Assembly (NCBI RefSeq): GCF_002812705.1
Contig: NZ_CP025030.1
Location: 6,014,001 to 6,078,000 of the forward strand
Direction: 5' to 3'
Source of the DNA: Achromobacter spanius
GTDB lineage: Bacteria > Pseudomonadota > Gammaproteobacteria > Burkholderiales > Burkholderiaceae_B
Length of the DNA: 64,000 nt
Within the stretch, counting starts at the first letter, position 1, and each line of letters begins with the position of its first letter. The notes below the pieces were generated by a model. The model saw only the letters and a list, made by a program, of their open reading frames with translations. It was not told where the DNA came from and made no database searches. Positions 45,705 to 57,117 of this stretch are shown here, piece after piece. The position numbers were made by a program, and so were the translations under genes.

Positions 45705-46889
45705 ATGCCTATGCTTTTGCCCATCCTGCTACTTTCTGCCGCCGGTTTTACGATTCTGACCACCGAATTCCTTATCGTCGGACTGTTGCCCGCCCTGGCC
45801 CGCGACCTGCAGGTCACCGTGTCCCAGGCCGGCCTGCTTGTTTCGCTGTTCGCCTTCACGGTGGCGGCAACCGGCCCTTTGCTGACCGCCTTGATGGCCA
45901 ACGTCGAACGCAAGCGCCTGTTCATCGGCGTGCTGATATTGTTTGGCGTTTCAAACGCGGTTGCCGCCATGGCGCCGAACATCTGGGTCATGGCCGTGGC
46001 CCGCTTTGTGCCCGCGTTGGCCTTGCCCGTATTCTGGTCACTGGCCAGCGCTACCGCCGTCGAACTTGTTGGGCCCGCGCGCGCCGGCCGGGCGATTTCG
46101 ATGGTCGCTTTCGGCATCGTGGCCGCCACCGTGTTTGGCATCCCGATCGGGGTGCTGATCTCGGACGCATTCGGGTGGCGAGCGGCGTTCTGGGTGCTGT
46201 CGGCCGTGGCGTTCGCCAAGGCGCTGCTGCTGTTCCTGGCGTTTCCCAGCACCCGAATCCGCGCTGACAGCGTCAAATTGGTCACGCAACTGCGCATCCT
46301 GCGCAATCCCATCGTGCTGGGCCACGTGGTGCTGTCCCTGCTGGTGTTTACCGGCATGTTCACGGCCTACACCTATCTGGCGGACATGCTGGAACGTCTG
46401 GCGGGCTTTGACGGACAGATCGTTGGCTGGACGATGATGGCGTTCGGGGCGGTGGGCTTGATCGGCAACACGCTGGGCGGCCGCATGGTGGACCGTAGCC
46501 CCCTGGGCGCCACCGCGCTGTTTTCGTCGTTGATGGCGGCGGGTCTGGTATTTGTGGCGCCGGTGATGCAATCGCATGGCCTGTTGGCCGTGGCGCTGGG
46601 CCTGTGGGGCATCGCGCAAGCGGCGCTGTTCATCGTTTGCCACGTGCGCTTGATGAAGGCCGCCCCCGAGGCACCCGCCTTCGCGGCGTCGCTGAACATA
46701 TCGGGCGCCAACATCGGCATTGGCCTGGGCGCCGTGGTGGGCGGACACGTCATTGACCAGTACGGGTTGGCCTCGCTGGGTTGGGCCGCTGCCTTGATCG
46801 TGGCGATTTCAGTCGCCCTGGCGCTGGCGCTGATGGTCGCGTCGCGCACGCAGCCGTCGACCAAAACCGCTTGCGCGAATGCCGCCTGA
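45705..46889 (+). CDS. MFS transporter, DHA1-type efflux protein
   Basis: The 394-residue protein has twelve hydrophobic segments. Helices 1-2 read FTILTTEFLIVGLLPALARDLQVTVSQAGLLVSLF, helix 3 starts LTALMANVERKRLFIGV (motif A-like), and motif C-like stretches follow around FGIPIGVLISDAFGWRAAFW. This is the sugar-efflux/arabinose-efflux-like (AraJ) group of drug:H+ antiporters. The substrate is unknown. No regulator is adjacent. Confidence 0.85.
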   Translation: MPMLLPILLLSAAGFTILTTEFLIVGLLPALARDLQVTVSQAGLLVSLFAFTVAATGPLLTALMANVERKRLFIGVLILFGVSNAVAAMAPNIWVMAVARFVPALALPVFWSLASATAVELVGPARAGRAISMVAFGIVAATVFGIPIGVLISDAFGWRAAFWVLSAVAFAKALLLFLAFPSTRIRADSVKLVTQLRILRNPIVLGHVVLSLLVFTGMFTAYTYLADMLERLAGFDGQIVGWTMMAFGAVGLIGNTLGGRMVDRSPLGATALFSSLMAAGLVFVAPVMQSHGLLAVALGLWGIAQAALFIVCHVRLMKAAPEAPAFAASLNISGANIGIGLGAVVGGHVIDQYGLASLGWAAALIVAISVALALALMVASRTQPSTKTACANAA

Positions 46890-46980
46890 ACCCCGCTTGT
46901 GTCCGCCGCGCCACGCCTGGGCGACGGCCAGTGGACAGTACAGCAGGCTATGGCATTTACCAGTACAATAGAAAGTTCTT

Positions 46981-47370
46981 GGGGCCGATCCGGATTCGAC
47001 GTGGGTCGCGAAACAACTCAGGGCATGCCGAGCACCAGTTCGCTCGTTAAACCACTGGAAACACTACAAACGCCAACGACGAGCGTTTCGCTCTCGCCGC
47101 TTAAGCGGTGAGCCGCTGCACTGATCTGTCCTTGGGTCAGGCGGAGGAAGGCAACTTCCTAGGGGGGTAACCCTCGAACCGCAGCAGCGACATTCACAAG
47201 GAATCGGTCTGCGCTGGGGTCACACGGCTCAGATTTAAATTACGTGAATCGCTTTGGTCCGGCCTGTCGGTTGGCTAAGTCCAAAGTTAAAACTAAATAA
47301 ATCGACTACGCATGTAGAACTGATTGCAGAGGGCTTGCGGACGGGGGTTCAATTCCCCCCGGCTCCACCA
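46981..47370 (+). ncRNA. ssrA: Transfer-messenger RNA (tmRNA)
   Basis: The 5' end GGGGCCGATCCGGATTCGAC and the 3' end with T-arm GGTTCAATTCCCC, acceptor GGCTCC and encoded CCA form the tRNA-like domain of a one-piece tmRNA. The tag reading frame runs 47072-47104 and encodes ANDERFALAA then TAA, the usual betaproteobacterial degradation tag. tmRNA with SmpB rescues stalled ribosomes. A terminator follows at 47400. Confidence 0.97.
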
Positions 47371-47399
47371 AATTCCGCTTTATTGCACAGTGCTTAGCA

Positions 47400-47432
47400 A
47401 ATGGCCAACTCTTCGGGGTTGGCCATTTTTTT
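47400..47432 (+). terminator. Intrinsic terminator of ssrA
   Basis: A 10-bp stem AATGGCCAAC/GTTGGCCATT with loop is followed by a T run, 30 bases after the tmRNA CCA end. Confidence 0.93.
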
Positions 47433-47587
47433 GCCTAGGCGCAACACATGCCAGCTACCGGAAGTAACAAATGGGGGTATATCCCCAAGGTTCACCGGGA
47501 CCGAAATACTCCGTCACATATTACGAAAAATATCAAGACATAATCAACCCAAGAAAATGCCACCACGTCTGTGAGGTCATTCTTGTG

Positions 47588-48748
47588 ATGAAAGTCCTAT
47601 CCATCTTTGGGACCCGTCCCGAAGCGATCAAGATGGCGCCGCTTGTCACCGCCCTTTCCCAAGAGCCGGCGATTCAAAGCGTGGTGTGCGTCACCGGCCA
47701 ACATCGCGAGATGCTGGATCAGGTGCTGGCGCTGTTTGGGCTGCACGCCCAGCATGATCTGGACATCATGGTGCCGAACCAGACCTTGAATGGCCTGTAC
47801 TCACGCCTCATTGCCCGCGTGGACCAGGTTCTGGAAGCCGAACAGCCCGACTGCGTACTGGTGCATGGCGATACCAGCACCGCATCGGCCTGCGCATTGG
47901 CGTCGTTTCACCGACGCGTGCAGATCGGGCACGTCGAAGCCGGTTTGCGTACCGGCAACCTGGCGATGCCATTCCCCGAAGAAATGAACCGGCGTGTGGT
48001 CGATGCGATCGGCGACTGGTTGTTCGCCCCTACCGCGCAATCGCGCGGCAATCTGTCGCGCGAGAATTTGGCGGGGCGGATCACCGTCACCGGCAATACC
48101 GTGATCGACGCATTGGCGATGACGTGCGCCAAGCTGGATCCCTCGGGGCCGCTGGCACGACAGTTGGAGGCCCGTTACGGTTGGCTGGATACGACGCGGC
48201 GGCTACTGCTGGTGACGGGCCATCGGCGCGAGAGCTTTGGCGGCGGGTTCAAGAACATCTGCGCCGCGTTGGCGGAACTGGCGCACCGCGAAGATTTGCA
48301 GATCGTCTACCCGGTGCATTTGAATCCGCAGGTGCGCAATGTAGTGATGACGGATCTGGCCGGACTGTCGCATGTGCACCTGATTGATCCCCTGGATTAC
48401 CTGGATTTTGTCTGGTTCATGCAACGCGCGCATCTCATCCTTACCGATTCGGGCGGGGTGCAGGAAGAGGCGCCCTATCTGGGCAAGCCGGTGCTGGTCA
48501 TGCGCGATGTGACCGAGCGCCCCGAGGCGGTTGAAGCCGGCACGGTGGCGCTGGTCGGCACGGATGCCCGGCGCATTGTGACCGAGGTGAATCGCCTGCT
48601 GGACGACGCCGACCTGCATGCGTCGTTTTCAAGGCGCATCAACCCTTACGGCGACGGCCGCGCCAGCCAACGCATCGTGGATGCGCTATGCGGCCGCGCC
48701 GTCTCTGAATTTGATCCCTACGGGACCGCCATCACCCCATCCGCCTGA
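47588..48748 (+). CDS. wecB: UDP-N-acetylglucosamine 2-epimerase (non-hydrolysing)
   Basis: The 386-residue GT-B-fold epimerase opens MKVLSIFGTRPEAIKMAP. It has the catalytic and UDP-binding blocks VHGDTSTASA, HVEAGLRTGNLAMPFPEEMNRR, VTGHRRESFG and LTDSGGVQEEAPYLGKPVLVMRDVTERPE. It interconverts UDP-GlcNAc and UDP-ManNAc. An in-frame GTG one codon upstream has slightly better ribosome-binding-site spacing. It is first in an operon with a BcsB-like protein, an NfrB-type glycosyltransferase and an NfrA-like protein. It should supply UDP-ManNAc to that glycosyltransferase. The 150 bases before it are unusually AT-rich, and its stop overlaps an ATG of the next frame. Confidence 0.95.
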   Translation: MKVLSIFGTRPEAIKMAPLVTALSQEPAIQSVVCVTGQHREMLDQVLALFGLHAQHDLDIMVPNQTLNGLYSRLIARVDQVLEAEQPDCVLVHGDTSTASACALASFHRRVQIGHVEAGLRTGNLAMPFPEEMNRRVVDAIGDWLFAPTAQSRGNLSRENLAGRITVTGNTVIDALAMTCAKLDPSGPLARQLEARYGWLDTTRRLLLVTGHRRESFGGGFKNICAALAELAHREDLQIVYPVHLNPQVRNVVMTDLAGLSHVHLIDPLDYLDFVWFMQRAHLILTDSGGVQEEAPYLGKPVLVMRDVTERPEAVEAGTVALVGTDARRIVTEVNRLLDDADLHASFSRRINPYGDGRASQRIVDALCGRAVSEFDPYGTAITPSA

Positions 48749-48786
48749 TGCATCCCCCCGCGACGCATTCCTGCCCCGGAGTCCGC

Positions 48787-51000
48787 ATGCACCACCCCGC
48801 CCTGCACTTTCCTGTTGCCCGAACCCTAAGCCGCGCGCTGATGGCGGCGGGACTACTGCTTCCCTTGGCCACCCTGGCCAGCCCGGCCGGCGACGCGCTG
48901 CGGCGTTTGCAGGGCGACGACTGGGCAACGCGCAACATCACGCTGCAAGACCTGGGCATTACCGAGCCCGTCGTCCTGACCAACAGCGATGCGCACCACG
49001 AGTTCTTTTTGCCCGTGCCGCGCGGCGTGCCGATCCTGGACGCAACCCTGGATTTCGACGCCAAATACACCAAAGGTGAATCGGGCCGGACCAACATGGT
49101 GCTGTGGCTGGACGGCATCCCGCAGACCGCGCAACGCATTGCCGATGGCGACGGGTCGGTGGCGCGCAATCTGACGGTCGAGCAGCGCAACCGCCAGACC
49201 GGCTTCCTGCGGCTGGGTGTGGACTGGCAGTCGGAGATCGCGCTGCGCCACTGCGAAAGCAACCGCGCCACCGCCAACGCGCTGACCATTTCGCCGCAGA
49301 CCCGGTTGAGCTACCGCTACGACGCCTCGGCCATCAACAACCTGGATGACGCCTGGGGCACCCTGCCCGGCAAGCCCGTGTTGATGGTTGCGGGCGCCAA
49401 GCTCGACCAGCAGGCCTTCGATAGCGCCTGGCGTCTTGGCGTGGCGCTGGAACGCACGGGCAAGCGGGTCTCGGTCCGGGCGTTCCCGTCGGTGGGCGAC
49501 GAGATTGACACGCGCGGGCTGCAAGTACCGGCGGGCCTGGAACGGGTCACCGCCTTTGCCGCCATCGCCGGCAAGGAGAAGCACAAGCTGGCCAGCCCGG
49601 CGGAACTTGGCGCCTTGCTGGTGCTGGGCGCCCCCGCCGTCAGCGCTGACGTGGCGATTGTGGATGCCGCATTTCGCGCGCGCTACAACGAAGCGCTGGA
49701 TGCGTTGCAGGTGCAACTGGCCTCGGACAGCGACGCAGCCGACGCCTTCAAAGCGTGGCGCCAGGCGCGCATGCCGCTGGCCGGCGCCGACCTGCCCGCC
49801 AAGGACATCCGGCTGCTGCCGCTGGGCCGGCAAGCCGTGATCGCGGTGGCGGCCGATGCGGGCGCACAAGCCGCAGGCGCTTTCGACAGCGCATGGCGGC
49901 GCATCCTGGTGACCCGCCACGTCAACGTCAAGGCCGCGACGCCGCCACTGAGCGCGGATGGGGCATTGCGCCTGACCGCGTTGGGCGGCTCCGCCGACAG
50001 CTTCGATGTTGCGTCGCGCGGCGACTGGACCACCACGTTCCCACTGTCGGCCGTGTCCTCGGGCGGCCTCATGCCCGACGAACTGGTGATGGACCTGGCC
50101 GCGGCGCCCGGCGCCTCGTCCACGCGACCGGTGGCCTCCGTCTTCTGGAACGGCATCCTGCTGACGGCCAAGCAGATGGACGCGGATGGCAAACCCGAAC
50201 GCCTCAGGGCGCGCGTTCCGGGCTATGCCCTGGGCGTCAACAATGCCGTGCGCGTCACGTTCCAGCGGCAGCCCGTTTCGGTGGATTGCAATGAGATCCC
50301 GCAGGGCTACCCTGTCAACGTCCTGCCGACCAGCTATGTGCAGCCGGGCAAGGCGCAGCCGGACGGCAGCTTTGTCGGGCTGCTGCCCTTGATGGCGGGC
50401 AACCCGCAACTGATCATTCCCGACAGCTATCTGGCCGACGCGCCCGACAACATCAAACGCGTGATCGGCATTGCCTCGGCAAGCGGCGTATCGCCGACGC
50501 GCGCGGAACTGGCGGTGACGCCGGTTGGCCAGGCGGTGAAGCCCGGCCGCGCTTTCCTGGCGATGGAAGTGGCGGTGGATGGCGCCGAACCCATGGTCAC
50601 GGTCACGGACCGCAAGCAGTTGACGGTAGCCGGCAAGACCGCGACGTGGCTCGACATCTCCGGGCTGGAAAACCTGAGCACGGCGGAAGTCGTGCGCGGC
50701 AATGGCCAGGATGGGTTGCTGTGGCACACGCTGGGCCAGTACCCGGGCAGGTTGGACGCGCCTTTCGTGCTGAACCGGGGCAATGTCGCCGTCATCGGCG
50801 CCACGGGGCCGATTGCCTGGATAGACAGCGCCAACCCTGACGCCAGCCACCCACCGGGCGCGGGCGAAAGCGCCTTCTTCGAGTGGCGTCGCTACGTCTC
50901 CTGGAGCGTGCCGGCCATCAGCGTCGCGCTGCTTGTCCTGATCCTGGTCCTGATCCTTGCCCGACGGGTAAATCGCAGGAAGACCAGGGAAACGAAGTAA
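48787..51000 (+). CDS. BcsB-like periplasmic polysaccharide synthase subunit
   Basis: The 737-residue protein has a signal peptide (VARTLSRALMAAGLLLPLATLA-S), a large periplasmic region of alternating carbohydrate-binding and flavodoxin-like modules as in BcsB, and one C-terminal membrane anchor (VPAISVALLVLILVLILARRVNRRK). Blocks such as FEWRRYVSWSVP before the anchor and the early VLTNSDAHHEFFLPVPRGV are in the BcsB style. BcsB guides nascent cellulose from BcsA across the periplasm. Here no BcsA exists and the partner is NfrB-like. I choose the ATG at 48787 because GGAG precedes it; an ATG at 48748 overlaps the wecB stop but has no such site. Confidence 0.8.
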   Translation: MHHPALHFPVARTLSRALMAAGLLLPLATLASPAGDALRRLQGDDWATRNITLQDLGITEPVVLTNSDAHHEFFLPVPRGVPILDATLDFDAKYTKGESGRTNMVLWLDGIPQTAQRIADGDGSVARNLTVEQRNRQTGFLRLGVDWQSEIALRHCESNRATANALTISPQTRLSYRYDASAINNLDDAWGTLPGKPVLMVAGAKLDQQAFDSAWRLGVALERTGKRVSVRAFPSVGDEIDTRGLQVPAGLERVTAFAAIAGKEKHKLASPAELGALLVLGAPAVSADVAIVDAAFRARYNEALDALQVQLASDSDAADAFKAWRQARMPLAGADLPAKDIRLLPLGRQAVIAVAADAGAQAAGAFDSAWRRILVTRHVNVKAATPPLSADGALRLTALGGSADSFDVASRGDWTTTFPLSAVSSGGLMPDELVMDLAAAPGASSTRPVASVFWNGILLTAKQMDADGKPERLRARVPGYALGVNNAVRVTFQRQPVSVDCNEIPQGYPVNVLPTSYVQPGKAQPDGSFVGLLPLMAGNPQLIIPDSYLADAPDNIKRVIGIASASGVSPTRAELAVTPVGQAVKPGRAFLAMEVAVDGAEPMVTVTDRKQLTVAGKTATWLDISGLENLSTAEVVRGNGQDGLLWHTLGQYPGRLDAPFVLNRGNVAVIGATGPIAWIDSANPDASHPPGAGESAFFEWRRYVSWSVPAISVALLVLILVLILARRVNRRKTRETK

Positions 51001-51019
51001 GCCGGCCGGGTCTTCCCCC

Positions 51020-52714
51020 ATGTCTTCCCTCTACTGGCCCTACTTCTTCGCGGACTATTACCGCGGGCTGGAAGTGGTGACCGCCATCGTCGGCGTCGTC
51101 ATCCTGCTATCGAGCCTGGACGATCTGTTCATCGACGCCTGGTACTGGTTGCGGGAACTGCGGCGTTCGCTGACGGTCAAGCGCCGCTACACGCCCTTGT
51201 CCGCCGAAGACCTGCGCGCGAAAGCCGAGCAACCGCTGGCGATCATGGTGCCCGCCTGGCTGGAGTACGACGTGATCTCGTCGATGCTTGAGACCATGGT
51301 GTCGACGCTGGAATACAAGAACTACATGATCTTCGCCGGCACCTACCAGAACGATCAGCGCACGATCGACGAGGTAGAGCGGATGCGGCGCCGATACCGC
51401 AAGTTGATCCGCGTGGAAGTGCCGCATGACGGGCCGACCTGCAAGGCGGACTGTCTGAACTGGATCGTGCAGGCCATCTTTGCGCAGAACGCGAAGCAGC
51501 CCGAGCCCTTTGCCGGCGTCATCCTGCACGACAGCGAAGACGTGCTGCACCCGCTGGAACTGAAGTACTACAACTATCTGCTGCCGCGCATCGACTTCAT
51601 CCAGTTGCCCGTCACGTCGCTGGAACGCCATTGGCATGAGCTGGTCGCCGGCACCTACATGGACGAGTTCGCCGAGTGGCACACCAAGGACCTGGTGGTG
51701 CGCGAAAGCCTGTCGAAGATGGTGCCGTCGGCGGGCGTGGGCACCTGTTTTTCGCGCCGCGCGCTGGAACAACTGGCGGCGGAAACCAACAACCAGCCCT
51801 TCAATACCGACACGCTGACCGAGGACTACGACATCGGCGCGCGGCTGGCGCAACGCGGCATGAAGCAGATTTTTGGAAAGTTCCAGGTGGAATACGTGAC
51901 GCGCCGGCGTTCCTGGTTCGGCCTGGGACGCGAAAAGGTGTCCAGCATTCGCATGCCGCTGGGCGTGCGCGAATATTTTCCCAACACCTTTCGCACCGCG
52001 TACCGGCAAAAGGCGCGCTGGACGCTGGGCATCGGCCTGCAAGGCTGGCAGCAGGTGGGCTGGACGGGCTCGCTGGCCAACCGGTATCTGCTGTTCCGCG
52101 ATCGCAAGGGCCTGGTTACGTCGTTCATCGCGATTCTTGCCTACGTGCTGCTGGCCAACTTCTTCCTGTTCTTCCTGGCGGATAAATTTGGCTGGTGGAC
52201 GGTGTATTACCCGTCGTACTTCCGGCCCGGCGGCTGGTTGGTGACGCTGATGTGGCTCAATGCCGCCGCCCTGCTGCTGCGCGTGGTGCAACGGGCGTAC
52301 TTCGTGGGTCACATGTATGGGTGGGAACACGCGGTGCTGTCGATACCCCGCATGATCGTGGGCAACTTCATCAACGCCATGGCGGCGGCACGTGCCTGGC
52401 GCCTGTTCATCGTGCACCTGATCACCGGCAAGCGCCTGGCCTGGGACAAGACCATGCACGACTTCCCCAGCACGGACCAGTTGTCGCAGCAACGCAAGCG
52501 GCTGGGCGAACTGCTGCTGTCGTGGCAGGCCATCGACCAGGACACGCTGGCGCGCGCGCTTGAGATCCAGGCGCGCGACAAGAAGCCCTTGGGCCAGATC
52601 CTGACCGAACAAGGCTGGCTGGACGAGGGCACGCTGAACGAAGCCATCGACTTCCAACAATCGGGCCAGGTGGCGCCATCACCACACGCCAACGACAAAC
52701 CCGCGACGACATGA
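51020..52714 (+). CDS. nfrB: NfrB-type glycosyltransferase family 2 with C-terminal MshEN c-di-GMP-binding domain
   Basis: The 564-residue inner-membrane GT2 has an N-terminal membrane segment (19-45) and a catalytic domain with LHDSEDVLHP (DxD region, 170-174), TEDYD (267-271) and RQKARW (329-334, QxxRW-like). Two or more C-terminal helices follow, then an MshEN domain (about 485-550) with its two half-motifs RLGELLLSWQAI and PLGQILTEQGWL. This matches E. coli NfrB, a c-di-GMP-activated glycosyltransferase reported to make a ManNAc polymer with WecB and NfrA. It starts 20 bases after the BcsB-like gene and overlaps the nfrA-like gene by four bases. Confidence 0.88.
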   Translation: MSSLYWPYFFADYYRGLEVVTAIVGVVILLSSLDDLFIDAWYWLRELRRSLTVKRRYTPLSAEDLRAKAEQPLAIMVPAWLEYDVISSMLETMVSTLEYKNYMIFAGTYQNDQRTIDEVERMRRRYRKLIRVEVPHDGPTCKADCLNWIVQAIFAQNAKQPEPFAGVILHDSEDVLHPLELKYYNYLLPRIDFIQLPVTSLERHWHELVAGTYMDEFAEWHTKDLVVRESLSKMVPSAGVGTCFSRRALEQLAAETNNQPFNTDTLTEDYDIGARLAQRGMKQIFGKFQVEYVTRRRSWFGLGREKVSSIRMPLGVREYFPNTFRTAYRQKARWTLGIGLQGWQQVGWTGSLANRYLLFRDRKGLVTSFIAILAYVLLANFFLFFLADKFGWWTVYYPSYFRPGGWLVTLMWLNAAALLLRVVQRAYFVGHMYGWEHAVLSIPRMIVGNFINAMAAARAWRLFIVHLITGKRLAWDKTMHDFPSTDQLSQQRKRLGELLLSWQAIDQDTLARALEIQARDKKPLGQILTEQGWLDEGTLNEAIDFQQSGQVAPSPHANDKPATT

Positions 52715-55515
52715 TCCCGCTGACCCGTTCGCTCATTCTGTCCGCTGCACTGGCCTGCGTGTGGGCCGCCTCGCCCGCCACCGCACAAACCGCCGCAAAA
52801 ACGGAAGCCCCGCTGGAAGGCGCGGCGTACCGCTTTGCCGAAGAGGCCCACAAGAATTTTGACGCGGGCAAGTACGAACTTGCGGCGCAGCAGGCAGAGT
52901 CGGCCATCGTGTTGCGGCCCGACGTGGAACGGCTGCACCTGCTGCTGATCTACGCGCTGCAAAAGCAGGGAAAGTTGCAAGAGGCTGAACAGGCCGCCGC
53001 CAACGCCGTCAAGGAAGGGGTGGATACGCCCGCGTTGCGGCAGGCCCGCGCCAACCTGCGTCCCGCGCCCGGCCCGGCCGCCACGCCGGTGGCACCGACC
53101 GCCACATCCACCACACCCGCTGCCACGTCGACGGCAAAACCCACCGCAACGCCGCCCCCGCCCGCCCCCCGACCCGCCTCCGCCTACAGCCGCGCTTACC
53201 CCATCGCCACCCGCGCCTACGCCGACTACAAACGCGGCGACTATGCCGCTGCCGCGCGCGGCGCCGAGCAGGCCTTTCGCATGGACCCCAAGCAAGGTGC
53301 CTGGGCCATGTTGTGGCTGGACGCGCTGGAAGCCCAAAACCAATACGCACAGGCCGAAGCCGCCGCCGACAGGGCGATTGCGCTGGGTGCCCCCAACAAG
53401 AAAGACCTGGCCGCCCGCCGCCAGACGATGAATGCGCGCATGGCCGCCAAGCAGGCTGGTGCGGCCTACCAGGCGCTAAGCGCCAACCGCCCCGACGACG
53501 CCGTGCCGCTGGCGCGCCAAGCCGTGGCCCTGGCGCCCGACTCCGCCAGCCACCGCCTGCTGTTGATCAACGCCCTGATGCTGGACGACCAATTGGCCGC
53601 CGCCGAAGCGGCCGCCACCGATGCCATCACGCAAAATAACGGCAACACCACGGCGCTTGTCATGCGCGGCTATCTGCGTCAACGCCAAGGCAAGACCGAC
53701 CTGGCGAATGCGGACTTTGACGCCGCGCTCAGGCAAGATCCGCAAGACGATACCCAACGCCGCAACGTCCGCCTGCTTGCCGCCGATGCGGCGTTGGCGG
53801 CCGGCGAAAATGCGCGCGCGCTGGACTTGCTGGCGCCCTTGGGCCAACAGGACGACGCGGCCGATGCACGGATAAAACGCGCGCGCTCCCGCCCCGCCGT
53901 ACCCGCCACATTGACGCTGGGCAACTACCCCGCGCCGGTACAAGACTGCCGCGACACGCCTGCCGGCGCCGTTTGCCAATTGCTGCCGTCCGACACCGCC
54001 GGCAATGGCGGCCCTGCCACACTGGCCTATGCTGCCTACGCACGGGAAGACTACGCCGAAGCCATCGCCCAGGCCCGCAAGGCAGTCGAACAAGATCCCG
54101 ACAACCAGGACTATCAGCGCCTGTTGACGACCACGCTGGCAGCCGGCAAGGGTCCCGAATTGGTCGAGGCAGAGCAACGCATGAGCCAAGCGCTGGCGGC
54201 CCAGCCCGACGACCCCACGCTGCTGATGCAGCGGGGCTATCTGTACCAGCGCATGAGGCGGCCCGCGCTTGCGCTGCGGGATTTCGAGGCCGCGCGCGCC
54301 ACCGGCAAAGCGCCGCCCACCGTGATCCTGGACGAAGGCTACGCGCGGGCCGGCTCGGGCGACAAGCGCGGCGCGGTCAACAACCTGAAGCAGGCCATCG
54401 ACGAGGCCGATGCCGGCAAGCTGGCCCTGACGCCGCAACAGCGCTATGACACCCGCAGCGGTATCGGCGAGCTGTCTCGTGAATGGGGCGGCTACGTTTC
54501 AGCCGGCTATCGTGGCGCGCGACCAGCCTCGTCGGGCCTGGGTGGCGCGGCCATCACCGTGCCTGGCGACGCCATCTTCAGCACGGCCGAAATCTTCTGG
54601 CGCCCAGCTGATTTCATGAACTCCGCCACGCAGACCTTCGAACTGTATGGGCGCGTTTCCAACACGCTTTATGACAAGGGCGGCACAACGCCGGAACAGA
54701 CAGTCGCCAACCCTTGCCCGAAAGAGGGAGCTTTCGATATTGCCGAAAGCCAAAACCAAGGTGTCGCCGGCTTCCCTACAACAATCGGATCGCTGGGCAT
54801 GCGCTTCACGCCATCCACGGAGGTAGGACTCACGTTCGGCATCGAACGCCAGTTCAACCTGGGCACCGCCACCCGACGCGGCTCCTTCAGTCCGGCCTCT
54901 TCCGATCTTCGCTGCGATCTCAACAGACTCCAGGCAACCCCTCATTACGAAACCACCGCCGACAACGGCGCCTGGCTGGCCTACGTCACCTACGGCCTGT
55001 ACGAAGGCACGACGCTGCGCATCGACCGGCCCGACTGGTTCACGATGGAAGGCTATCTGCAGGCCGGCTATTCCTGGCAGGACATGCCCGCAAAATTCTG
55101 GTTGCGCGACAACGTCACGGGCGAAGACAGCGACAAGGTCTCGGGCCGCATGAAGCGCGACCAGGCGTTCGGGGCCGGCGAAGTGCGCGTGGGCCGCAGC
55201 TATCGCGTGGATGCCATCAGCGACCGGCTGGTGCTGTTTCCCTATGCAGTGGTGGGCGCCGACTGGCTCTGGAACAAGAACCGCGCAGCTTTCTCCTCCC
55301 AGGGCGAGTCGCTTACCGTCGACCAGCTAGGCAACGGCTCATCCTGGTCGCTGGGCGCCGGACCCGGTTTCAACGTGCGTTACTGGTTCCGCGAAGACCA
55401 CTACAACGCGCCACGGTCTTATCTGGACCTGACCACGCAGTACCGTTTCAACATCGGCGGCGGTTCGGCCGACCGGGCTCGTGGTCTGTTCATCAACCTG
55501 ACCCTTTCGTACTGA
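52711..55515 (+). CDS. NfrA/BcsC-like TPR and outer-membrane beta-barrel protein
   Basis: The 934-residue protein has a signal peptide ending ATA-Q, then TPR-like repeats, a Pro/Thr/Ala-rich linker (about 118-165), further TPR repeats to about residue 590, and a C-terminal barrel with alternating aromatic strands. The barrel ends LFINLTLSY, an outer-membrane-protein terminus. This is the NfrA/BcsC/PgaA plan: TPRs in the periplasm and a barrel that exports the glycan. NfrA of E. coli is the phage N4 receptor. Translation is coupled to the nfrB gene through ATGA. Confidence 0.83.
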   Translation: MIPLTRSLILSAALACVWAASPATAQTAAKTEAPLEGAAYRFAEEAHKNFDAGKYELAAQQAESAIVLRPDVERLHLLLIYALQKQGKLQEAEQAAANAVKEGVDTPALRQARANLRPAPGPAATPVAPTATSTTPAATSTAKPTATPPPPAPRPASAYSRAYPIATRAYADYKRGDYAAAARGAEQAFRMDPKQGAWAMLWLDALEAQNQYAQAEAAADRAIALGAPNKKDLAARRQTMNARMAAKQAGAAYQALSANRPDDAVPLARQAVALAPDSASHRLLLINALMLDDQLAAAEAAATDAITQNNGNTTALVMRGYLRQRQGKTDLANADFDAALRQDPQDDTQRRNVRLLAADAALAAGENARALDLLAPLGQQDDAADARIKRARSRPAVPATLTLGNYPAPVQDCRDTPAGAVCQLLPSDTAGNGGPATLAYAAYAREDYAEAIAQARKAVEQDPDNQDYQRLLTTTLAAGKGPELVEAEQRMSQALAAQPDDPTLLMQRGYLYQRMRRPALALRDFEAARATGKAPPTVILDEGYARAGSGDKRGAVNNLKQAIDEADAGKLALTPQQRYDTRSGIGELSREWGGYVSAGYRGARPASSGLGGAAITVPGDAIFSTAEIFWRPADFMNSATQTFELYGRVSNTLYDKGGTTPEQTVANPCPKEGAFDIAESQNQGVAGFPTTIGSLGMRFTPSTEVGLTFGIERQFNLGTATRRGSFSPASSDLRCDLNRLQATPHYETTADNGAWLAYVTYGLYEGTTLRIDRPDWFTMEGYLQAGYSWQDMPAKFWLRDNVTGEDSDKVSGRMKRDQAFGAGEVRVGRSYRVDAISDRLVLFPYAVVGADWLWNKNRAAFSSQGESLTVDQLGNGSSWSLGAGPGFNVRYWFREDHYNAPRSYLDLTTQYRFNIGGGSADRARGLFINLTLSY

Positions 55516-55573
55516 CGGCTGTACTGAACGCTGTACTAACGGCGCATGGGCGCTGCCGCCCTACGCCCAGGCA

Positions 55574-56563
55574 TCAAACGCGCGCCGCTAACCAGGCCTG
55601 CATCAATGCCCGCGCCTCGGGCGTGTTGTCGATCACCCAAGGGTCTATCGCAAACGCCACCACCCGCTTGGCGCCGTAGCCGCGAGCCACCTCCCATTGC
55701 TGTTTGACGCGATCGAAATCCGCCGAGCGCGCCTTGAAGGTGGACCCGTCCGTGCTGCCCGAAGGCAGTTCCTCGAACAGCTCCAGGATCAAGTCGAACG
55801 AGGCGCGCCGCGCCAGCAGCATGTCGTGCAAGGGGGCGAGCGACTGGTAGTTGGCCAAGCCGGCCACACCCACCCCGTCCTGGATCATGGGGTGAATGCG
55901 CACCCGGTCCAGGATGCCGCTCCACAGCTTCGTCAAAGAGCCCTCGCCGGGCAGGCGGGAATGGTAGGTGGATATGCAGGGCACGCCCGGGCTGGTGGCC
56001 TGCGCCGTGCGTGAGAAGGCGTCCAGCCAGGGCATCAACAGCGCCTGCCGTTCGGCGGATGCCCAGTTGTATTGCTCCAGCTCGTAAGGCACATACCAAC
56101 CGCGAAAGGTGCGGCGCTTGGGCCAGGACGCGGCCTGCATATACGCCACGCCCCGCGCCCGCGTCTGGTCCAGATAAGCGGTCAGCGCCGCTTGATCCGG
56201 CTTGGCCAGCACGTCCCACCAGCGCTGGTCGTAAGGCAGGCCCACATGCACGCCCAGGCCCTGGTGCTCGGCCTCGTCAAAGATCATGCGCAGGAGGGCG
56301 TCGGACGCCATCCAATCGTCAGGCCGGCCACCTTCCAGGCCCACCCATTGCAGGAAGATCTCGCGGCATCCCAAACGGCGATAGGCCGACAAGCGCACAC
56401 GCCAGTCGTCGGGGCCCAGGTCCAGGTGGCTGCGCCACAGTTGCAGGAAGGTGGCGTTCAAGGACAGGGGCGGCGCGCAGGCGACCAAGGGTGCCAATGC
56501 GCCAAGCGCCAGCGCCTGAAGCAGGCGCCGGCGCGAGAAGGAGGTAAGCAGACGGTGCGTCAG
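55574..56563 (-). CDS. DUF4434-type lipoprotein, putative glycosidase
   Basis: The mature part has a TIM-barrel-like protein character: ATFLQLWRSHLDLGPDDW, REIFLQWVGLEG, GWYVPYELEQYNW, LANYQSLAPLHDML, FAIDPWVIDNT. It resembles DUF4434 putative glycosidases. The frame upstream of the first usable TTG (56497) encodes a clear signal: twin-Arg SRRRLLQALALGALAPLVAC with a lipobox Cys. No ATG, GTG or TTG lies before this signal within the open frame (to 56626), so I place the start at a CTG (56563). A frameshift or an error could also explain it. It converges on the wecB-nfrA operon and might trim its glycan. Confidence 0.65.
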   Translation of the reverse strand: MTHRLLTSFSRRRLLQALALGALAPLVACAPPLSLNATFLQLWRSHLDLGPDDWRVRLSAYRRLGCREIFLQWVGLEGGRPDDWMASDALLRMIFDEAEHQGLGVHVGLPYDQRWWDVLAKPDQAALTAYLDQTRARGVAYMQAASWPKRRTFRGWYVPYELEQYNWASAERQALLMPWLDAFSRTAQATSPGVPCISTYHSRLPGEGSLTKLWSGILDRVRIHPMIQDGVGVAGLANYQSLAPLHDMLLARRASFDLILELFEELPSGSTDGSTFKARSADFDRVKQQWEVARGYGAKRVVAFAIDPWVIDNTPEARALMQAWLAARV

Positions 56564-56583
56564 GAAAAAGCCCCGTGCCGCCC

Positions 56584-56997
56584 TTAGCCGCGGTTGCCGA
56601 ACATGCCGGACAACGACGCCAGCAGATCAGTCGGGTTGAATTGTTGGCCGGGCTGCACTTCGCCTTCCGGCGTGGCCTTGTCCACCAATTGGGGCAGCAG
56701 CGAAGACAGTGAAGCCAGCACCGAATCGGTGTCCTGCCCGGTCTTGGCGGACAGCTCGTTGACAACGCCGGGGTCCAGCACGGAACCCAACTGGTCGGCG
56801 CTGACGGGCAAGTTCTGGCCCGGGCCGACCCACGACGCCACCACTTCGCTCAAGCCGCCTTTCTGGAAGCTGGCGATCAGGCCGCTGAGGCCGCCCGGGT
56901 ATTTGTTCAATTGCTCGATCAACGCCGGCAGCAACGACGCCGAACCTCCTTGCTGACCGCCGCCGGCCATCGAGGCCAAGGTATCCAACAGGCTCAT
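56584..56997 (-). CDS. YidB-like protein (DUF937)
   Basis: The 137-residue protein is rich in short helical repeats: LLPALIEQLNKYPGGLSGLIASFQKGGLSEVVASWVG followed by NLPVSADQLGSVLDPGVVNELSAKTGQD. This is the YidB/DUF937 family, of unknown function. AGGAG precedes the start. It is 20 bases upstream of the CTG proposed for the DUF4434 lipoprotein, so the two may form an operon. Confidence 0.85.
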   Translation of the reverse strand: MSLLDTLASMAGGGQQGGSASLLPALIEQLNKYPGGLSGLIASFQKGGLSEVVASWVGPGQNLPVSADQLGSVLDPGVVNELSAKTGQDTDSVLASLSSLLPQLVDKATPEGEVQPGQQFNPTDLLASLSGMFGNRG

Positions 56998-57117
56998 CGC
57001 AGTGCTCCTGAAAAGTGGGAAAACCAGTATAGGGCCCCGGTTGGCGTCGCGCATGTCAGGGTGGTTACCTGGCGCGGGATCTTTGCAAAACTTGTAAATC
57101 TGGCGACTGGGGGCCTA

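What the first reader, a model, noticed from the sequence alone, without database searches (positions are those of the whole stretch)
47588..55515. Self-contained c-di-GMP-controlled glycan machine mixing Nfr and cellulose-type parts
The operon wecB, BcsB-like, NfrB-type GT2 with MshEN domain, NfrA-like TPR/barrel has touching or closely spaced genes. E. coli NfrB is reported as a c-di-GMP-activated glycosyltransferase that needs WecB (UDP-ManNAc) and NfrA to display a ManNAc polymer used by phage N4. Here the sugar-supply gene is in the same operon, and a BcsB-like periplasmic subunit, not part of the described E. coli set, is added. The result has the topology of Bcs (synthase, periplasmic guide, TPR-barrel exporter) with an Nfr synthase. 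I infer a secreted ManNAc-type polysaccharide, possibly a phage receptor and biofilm factor. Product, activation and BcsB role are inference.
Basis: partly seen in the sequence, partly recalled or inferred. Interest (0 to 1): 0.85.

Follow-up and report, generated by a model that had tools for sequence, protein, structure and literature searches.

The report
Bacterial sugar-polymer export operon (Nfr type)

Summary
WecB and NfrB match curated families; NfrB keeps the 53-residue c-di-GMP motif; the BcsB-like protein has the whole BcsB fold (Foldseek E 1.6e-23), although sequence similarity covers one domain only. The combination is in print: Sellner et al. 2021 name it in A. xylosoxidans, and a 2025 Acinetobacter paper shows that a BcsB homologue in such a locus is needed for phage adsorption.

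What I add: (1) a convergent fifth gene of the YbcH family (DUF4434): in 33 of 33 NfrB-bearing Achromobacter genomes, and among 399 genomes of the order over cut-off in 14 of 16 with NfrB and 0 of 383 without; conserved residues suggest a glycoside hydrolase. (2) The block sits behind ssrA and is absent as a whole in two of eight NfrB-lacking relatives examined. (3) In 14 of 21 named Achromobacter loci an acylation module, Dlt-like where tested, follows nfrA; this window lacks it. (4) Nearly all BcsB-like genes found go with one NfrB clade. Product and activation remain inference.

The parts
46981..47370 (+). ssrA (tmRNA), left border of the block; not part of the system
   Evidence: ARAGORN, tag ANDERFALAA; in two NfrB-lacking relatives ssrA lies directly beside the YidB gene
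47399..47428 (+). terminator-like hairpin with T run behind ssrA, so that the operon probably has its own start
   Evidence: consensus scan, 13-pair stem; 8 such sites were found in 46700-56700 against 8.4 in shuffles, so only its length and place speak for it
47588..48748 (+). wecB: non-hydrolysing UDP-GlcNAc 2-epimerase, expected to give UDP-ManNAc
   Evidence: TIGR00236 467 bits, model position 1 at the ATG at 47588; best solved relatives are UDP-GlcNAc 2-epimerases 1vgv and 1f6d; only match over cut-off in the genome
48748..51000 (+). bcsB-like: periplasmic subunit with signal-peptide-like start, beta-sandwich and alpha/beta domains in the BcsB order, C-terminal membrane helix
51020..52714 (+). 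nfrB: membrane GT2 synthase with C-terminal c-di-GMP motif (residues 494-546)
52711..55515 (+). nfrA: TPR plus outer-membrane barrel exporter
   Evidence: PF13283 NfrA_C 100.8 bits, several TPR families
55574..56497 (-). ybcH family (DUF4434), convergent with nfrA; probable exported glycoside hydrolase; start codon unsure
   Evidence: PF14488 205.5 bits; PRK09936 76.3 bits, below that model's cut-off of 344; E. coli ybcH is annotated DUF4434; co-occurrence with NfrB; N-terminal SRRRLLQ...LVAC
56584..57054 (-). YidB-like gene, right border of the block; not part of the system
   Evidence: PF20159; directly beside ssrA in relatives G036 and G009

Best explanation
This is an Nfr/NGR-type exopolysaccharide system. 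WecB makes UDP-ManNAc; NfrB, an inner-membrane GT2 synthase, polymerises it (or a related amino sugar) and threads the chain out when c-di-GMP binds its C-terminal tandem motif; the BcsB-type protein, held to the membrane by its C-terminal helix, receives and guides the chain through the periplasm; NfrA passes it through the outer membrane; the YbcH-family protein trims or clears chains as a periplasmic hydrolase. The five genes appear to come and go as one block behind ssrA. Shown here by computation: identity and fold of the parts, conserved catalytic and c-di-GMP-contact residues, linkage, co-occurrence, empty site in two relatives. Inferred: the sugar, the activation, the hydrolase activity, a surface role as a phage docking site.
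For: Family matches; the only WecB over cut-off and the only BcsB of the genome lie here; NfrB catalytic residues invariant over 28 NfrB proteins; the E. coli residues L490, G491 and G519, whose change lowered phage N4 infection (PMC8669469 and PMC8669472, passages), correspond to L495, G496 and G525 here; this NfrB alone matches the PilF c-di-GMP region at E 0.0013, residues 490-549, and the 28-sequence profile matches MshE 5htl at E 2e-15; BcsB fold; NfrB fold like BcsA and hyaluronan synthase; trees of 20 BcsB-like and 20 NfrB proteins broadly agree; DUF4434 with NfrB in 33 of 33 genus genomes and in 14 of 16 against 0 of 383 in the order.
Confidence: 0.8

Rival explanations
1. It is a divergent cellulose (Bcs) system that makes a glucan; wecB is a neighbour only.
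For: BcsB fold and BcsA-like synthase fold.
Against: No PilZ match in NfrB at E <= 1; NfrB scores 943 bits to the Nfr-type model; the exporter matches NfrA_C; a wecB lies in 34 of the 36 loci with a BcsB-like gene in my profile's reach (23 of the 36 were fetched by the BcsB-like protein).
Confidence: 0.08
2. The same machine, but not gated by c-di-GMP: the shortened C-terminus is a relic and NfrB is always on or controlled by expression.
For: The part behind the motif is missing in Achromobacter, Variovorax and near kin; no diguanylate cyclase among the 20 neighbouring ORFs scanned.
Against: Both half-motifs are found by my pattern in the 22 Achromobacter NfrB (L002-L019, L021-L023 and L077) and in the window; NF053729 scores over its cut-off; contact residues are conserved.
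Confidence: 0.12
3. The DUF4434 gene is a bystander of the locus, not a component.
For: Opposite strand; dispensable for N4 infection in E. coli (PMC8669469, passage); family also present outside Nfr genomes (controls); none within the loci L026, L029, L068, L069 and L074-L076, whose genomes were not searched for it.
Against: Co-occurrence in genus and order; [quoted passage not shown] coli (PMC8669469); absent together with NfrB from G036 and G009, where the block is missing; downstream of nfrB on the opposite strand in 32 of 33 genus genomes, the 33rd having it on another contig.
Confidence: 0.08

Closest known systems
E. coli NfrB-NfrA-YbcH-WecB (NGR) system, PMC8669469 and PMC8669472
   Same: Synthase, exporter, YbcH-family protein, WecB, c-di-GMP motif
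   Different: wecB is inside the locus; a BcsB-type subunit is added; NfrB is 564 instead of 745 residues and 41% identical; ybcH is convergent instead of in the operon
A. xylosoxidans nfr cluster named in Sellner et al. 2021 (PMC8669472, one passage; its Fig. S5 not seen)
   Same: nfrA, nfrB, wecB and a BcsB homologue in the same genus
   Different: That cluster also has O-acetyltransferase homologues; none were found beside this window's locus; ybcH is not named in the passage
Acinetobacter PGR locus pgrA-G (PMC12507263, section 11)
   Same: NfrB-like PgrC, BcsB-like PgrD, WecB-like PgrF, outer-membrane PgrG, and PgrE likened to the C-terminus of PgaB
   Different: Has PgrA, a cyclase-like protein without GGDEF; sequences were not compared here
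Bcs cellulose synthase BcsA-BcsB-BcsC-BcsZ (partly recalled)
   Same: BcsB fold, processive GT2 fold, TPR-barrel exporter; a hydrolase by analogy
   Different: MshEN-type motif instead of PilZ; linked to wecB; exporter is NfrA

Membership tests
Nfr/NGR exopolysaccharide system | NfrB-type GT2 with the catalytic D, TED and QxxRW residues | tested here: met
   NF012033 943 bits; D171, E173, D174, T267-D269, Q330, R333, W334 invariant in A2 and A4
Nfr/NGR exopolysaccharide system | c-di-GMP-binding MshEN-type motif on NfrB | tested here: met
   NF053729 52.4 bits over cut-off 38; binding itself not tested; Pfam MshEN PF05157 not matched
Nfr/NGR exopolysaccharide system | NfrA exporter, TPR plus NfrA_C | tested here: met
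   PF13283 100.8 bits
Nfr/NGR exopolysaccharide system | a WecB in the genome | tested here: met
   TIGR00236, one match over cut-off, in this operon
Nfr/NGR exopolysaccharide system | YbcH-family protein | tested here: met
   PF14488 205.5 bits; PRK09936 76.3 bits, under its equivalog cut-off 344, so same family but not the E. coli equivalog by that rule
Nfr/NGR exopolysaccharide system | ManNAc polymer at the surface, c-di-GMP dependent, phage receptor | not testable with these tools
   needs chemistry, mutants and phage adsorption
BcsB protein family | PF03170 over the curated cut-off | tested here: met
   24.3 bits against 21, residues 61-198 only
BcsB protein family | two carbohydrate-binding-type and two alpha/beta domains with C-terminal membrane anchor | tested here: met
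BcsB protein family | full-length sequence homology to BcsB | tested here: inconclusive
   profile of 18 finds no BcsB in the PDB at E <= 10; profile-profile covers residues 62-198 only
Bcs cellulose synthase system | PilZ domain on the synthase | tested here: not met
   no PilZ among Pfam matches at E <= 1 (HMMER's filters drop most weak matches)
Bcs cellulose synthase system | a canonical BcsB in the genome | tested here: not met
   the only PF03170 match of the genome at E <= 0.01 is this gene
Acinetobacter PGR locus | homology of each part to PgrA-G | not tested
   sequences not at hand; compared by description only
glycoside hydrolase (for the DUF4434 protein) | TIM barrel with two catalytic acids | tested here: inconclusive
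   E139, D207 and E239 invariant in 20 members; best solved relative of the profile is 4h41, a putative alpha-L-fucosidase, E 4.4e-4; no model made

The most novel reading that the evidence does not exclude
YbcH/DUF4434 is the dedicated glycoside hydrolase of the NfrB glycan and a standing component of Nfr systems in this order, and in most Achromobacter the glycan is decorated by a Dlt-like module (adenylation enzyme, carrier protein, MBOAT, two AlgX-like SGNH proteins), giving an aminoacylated rather than merely acetylated ManNAc polymer; the window's strain carries the bare form. Exchange of the whole block behind ssrA, and gain or loss of the decoration, would change a phage docking site at one stroke.
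Probability: 0.4. Interest if true: 0.65.

Novelty: new member of a known kind. Interest (0 to 1): 0.42.

Why it matters
The Nfr glycan is a phage receptor whose structure the papers I saw leave open. A compact locus with its own sugar supply, a BcsB-type subunit of known fold and a probable matching hydrolase gives a practical route to purify, cut and identify the polymer, and to ask why some Nfr synthases have a BcsB partner and others do not.

Tried and rejected
Idea that a short NfrB C-terminus goes with a BcsB partner: rejected. Short NfrB (about 562-575 aa; L007's ORF is 608 from an upstream start) occurs in BcsB-bearing Achromobacter, L020, L024, L025, L052 and L053, but BcsB-bearing L026-L028, L054-L056, L066 and L067 have long NfrB (ORFs of 707-752 aa).

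Idea that a BcsB-like gene replaces ybcH: rejected. Both occur together in the window, L007, L011, L017, L018, L022, L023, L025, L066 and L067 and, with a divergent DUF4434 (64-75 bits in my profile), in L027, L028, L054 and L055.

Idea that the BcsB-like gene was borrowed from a cellulose operon of the same genome: no second BcsB match in G000.

Searches that led nowhere: PDB sequence search with the BcsB-like profile found nothing relevant at E <= 10; PDB search with the single YbcH sequence found nothing at E <= 1; no sigma-70-like promoter in 46700-56700; a paper search for DUF4434 gave 0 papers. NfrB with BcsB gave four papers, of which two bear on the question. For a Dlt-like decoration of an Nfr glycan one search was made (terms D-alanylation, exopolysaccharide, DltB, c-di-GMP, at least three of four); 38 papers, 20 listed, none of the listed titles on this; the library lacks most subscription papers.

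Against the co-occurrence reading: 15 NfrB-like hits of family f85 in the phylum sample (ORFs of 441-544 aa, whose match to this NfrB ends at residues 481-497, at or before the start of the motif) had no DUF4434 and no BcsB-like gene in their 16.6-20 kb loci; one (L036) has WecB and a weak NfrA, two (L044, L045) a very weak NfrA. They may be another GT branch. My motif pattern misses E. coli NfrB too, so its silence means nothing. No DUF4434 lies within loci L026, L029, L068, L069 and L074-L076; those genomes were not searched for it. G329 has a DUF4434 match below the cut-off without NfrB. G028 and G034 have DUF4434 without NfrB but are 78% and 57% complete. In G180 DUF4434 is on another contig than nfrB. 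Controls show the family outside Nfr genomes. L023, named A. xylosoxidans, has no acylation genes in its 22 kb locus by my tblastn, unlike the strain of Sellner et al.
Full report
WHAT IS THERE. The window lies in a 6.43 Mb single-contig genome. Of the 23 loci found with its BcsB-like protein in named genomes, 21 are Achromobacter, and the NfrB tree puts the window beside A. piechaudii (support 92/66), so the host is an Achromobacter. The wecB ORF opens at 47471, but the family match begins at the ATG at 47588. Upstream are ssrA (46981-47370) and a terminator-like hairpin of 13 pairs (47399-47428). Behind nfrA, on the other strand, lies a DUF4434 gene, then YidB-like, lytic transglycosylase, MOSC and DUF455 genes.

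HOW WIDELY THE SET IS LINKED. Searches annotated 76 loci plus the window with profiles built here. L002-L024 were fetched through the BcsB-like protein and cannot count as a test of linkage. The 53 loci L025-L077 were collected through NfrB: 8 of 27 plasmid records with an NfrB match, 44 genome places, and L077 from the genus. Of these 53, 12 have a BcsB-like gene in my profile's reach, 11 of them with wecB and nfrA too; a 13th, L076, has a divergent one (Pfam BcsB 140 bits) with wecB, nfrA and nfrB. In a tree of 62 NfrB proteins (15 near-identical Achromobacter rows left out beforehand) the 21 BcsB-linked ones lie in one clade of 22 (support 100/100); the other member, L057, ends at its contig end just upstream of nfrB and cannot be judged. 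L076 is in a distant clade. Trees of 20 BcsB-like and 20 NfrB proteins agree broadly, with L028 and L052 placed differently (L005, L026 and L066 left out as split, other near-identical rows left out too). So the BcsB partner was joined to, or kept by, one NfrB lineage that reaches beta-, gamma- and alphaproteobacteria, and at least one other lineage has its own.

THE FIFTH GENE. E. coli ybcH is a DUF4434 gene. In the genus, NfrB is found in 33 of 43 genomes and DUF4434 in 35 of 43; the 33 NfrB genomes all have it, and the two extra ones are incomplete assemblies (78% and 57%); Fisher p = 3e-7 over all 43, not corrected for relatedness. In the order, DUF4434 over its cut-off occurs in 14 of 399 genomes, all among the 16 with NfrB (the same sample by the handles shown; p = 5e-24, same caveat). 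The other two, G141 and G161, have a divergent DUF4434 beside nfrA by my profile (64 and 73 bits); a relative of that kind, L027's, scores 26.1 bits in Pfam, under the cut-off of 30. In 32 of 33 genus genomes the gene lies downstream of nfrB on the opposite strand; in one it is on another contig. The family is wider than Nfr: it rings in 3 of 14 control genomes. Twenty members share Q19, Q50, W51, G86, L87, Y135, E139, S176, Q206, D207, G208, G210, E239 and F241. E139 in GWYxPxE and E239 in LELF, 100 residues apart, look like the acid/base and nucleophile of a clan-A hydrolase (a recalled pattern); the profile's best solved relative is a putative alpha-L-fucosidase (E 4.4e-4) and, not significantly, an endoglucanase. 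The window's copy begins with a twin-arginine-like stretch and a possible lipobox (recalled patterns), start codon unsure. I therefore predict a periplasmic hydrolase of the NfrB glycan. The E. coli authors call YbcH a putative scaffold, dispensable for N4 infection and partly needed for the motility effect (passages).

A BLOCK BEHIND ssrA. Eight NfrB-lacking Achromobacter genomes were examined; MFS lies left of ssrA in all eight. In two, G036 (ssrA identical to the window's) and G009, YidB follows ssrA at once: about 0.13-0.16 kb, from match starts and gene length, instead of 9.2 kb. In the other six no YidB match lies within the 1.5 kb held on that side. Of the 21 named Achromobacter loci, 14 have ssrA in the locus and 7 do not (L009, L011, L017, L018, L021, L022, L023); L077 does not either. 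So the left flank differs in part of the genus.

DECORATION MODULE IN RELATIVES. In 19 of 33 Achromobacter genomes NfrB and DUF4434 are 9.4-10.3 kb apart, in 12 (with the window) 2.4-3.0 kb, in one 24 kb, in one on different contigs; what fills the longer gap was read only in named loci and L077. In L020 (Oxalicibacterium) the stretch holds two AlgX-type SGNH proteins, an MBOAT protein, a 79-residue carrier protein and an adenylation enzyme nearest to DltA (346 bits, below the cut-off of 476). By tblastn the SGNH, MBOAT and adenylation genes are in 14 of 21 named Achromobacter loci, in L015 without the last because its contig ends; the carrier was looked for, and found, in L002. The MBOAT is below the DltB cut-off (180 against 375). 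L024, L027 and L077 have MBOAT and SGNH genes without the adenylation enzyme beside them. Sellner et al. mention periplasmic O-acetyltransferase homologues; the adenylation enzyme and carrier point to an activated amino acid or other acyl group instead. The window has none of this beside the operon; two MBOAT genes lie elsewhere in its genome and were not studied.

LITERATURE. Seen: abstracts and outlines of PMC8669469 and PMC8669472; passages of both; sections 11 and 15 of the first; passages and section 11 of PMC12507263. PMC8669472 states in one passage that nfrA, nfrB and wecB of A. xylosoxidans cluster with a BcsB homologue and O-acetyltransferases. PMC12507263 reports that deletion of the BcsB homologue pgrD abolishes adsorption of phage StAb3 and gives resistance that complementation reverses, and that a mutant in the wecB homologue is resistant, again reversed. 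Supplementary figures were not seen. Other papers were seen as search listings only.

VERDICT. A correct reading of a real locus, of a kind already in print for the same genus. What I did not find in those papers' passages is the tight co-occurrence of the fifth gene and its likely hydrolase residues, the block behind ssrA with empty sites, the NfrB clade that carries BcsB, the whole-chain BcsB fold, and the Dlt-like module in relatives. On rechecking, one argument against c-di-GMP binding (Q at position 10) fell, since E. coli NfrB has it too; the second rival was lowered from 0.15 to 0.12, and the bystander rival raised from 0.07 to 0.08 for the controls and the loci without DUF4434.

Noticed in passing
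L020:16684-22091 and L002:16826-22259 (behind nfrA): Dlt-like module: two AlgX-type SGNH proteins, MBOAT, 79-aa carrier protein, DltA-like adenylation enzyme; suggests aminoacyl or other acyl decoration of the Nfr glycan.
   Followed up: partly
L005 (wecB, bcsB-like, nfrA), L022 and L023 (wecB), L026 and L066 (bcsB-like), L007 (nfrA): ORFs of the system appear split in some assemblies; could be sequencing error or inactivation. Not examined at base level.
   Followed up: no
window 46981-47428: ssrA with a terminator-like hairpin is the left border of a block that is present or absent among species, a typical insertion site (recalled).
   Followed up: partly
L076:8951-15957: A second, distant NfrB lineage with its own divergent BcsB-like gene in the order bcsB-wecB-nfrA-nfrB.
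   Followed up: partly
L027:1-4392 (Paraburkholderia dioscoreae plasmid pII): Integrase genes lie just upstream of a wecB-bcsB-nfrB-nfrA cluster with AlgF- and MBOAT-type genes, hinting at mobility.
   Followed up: no
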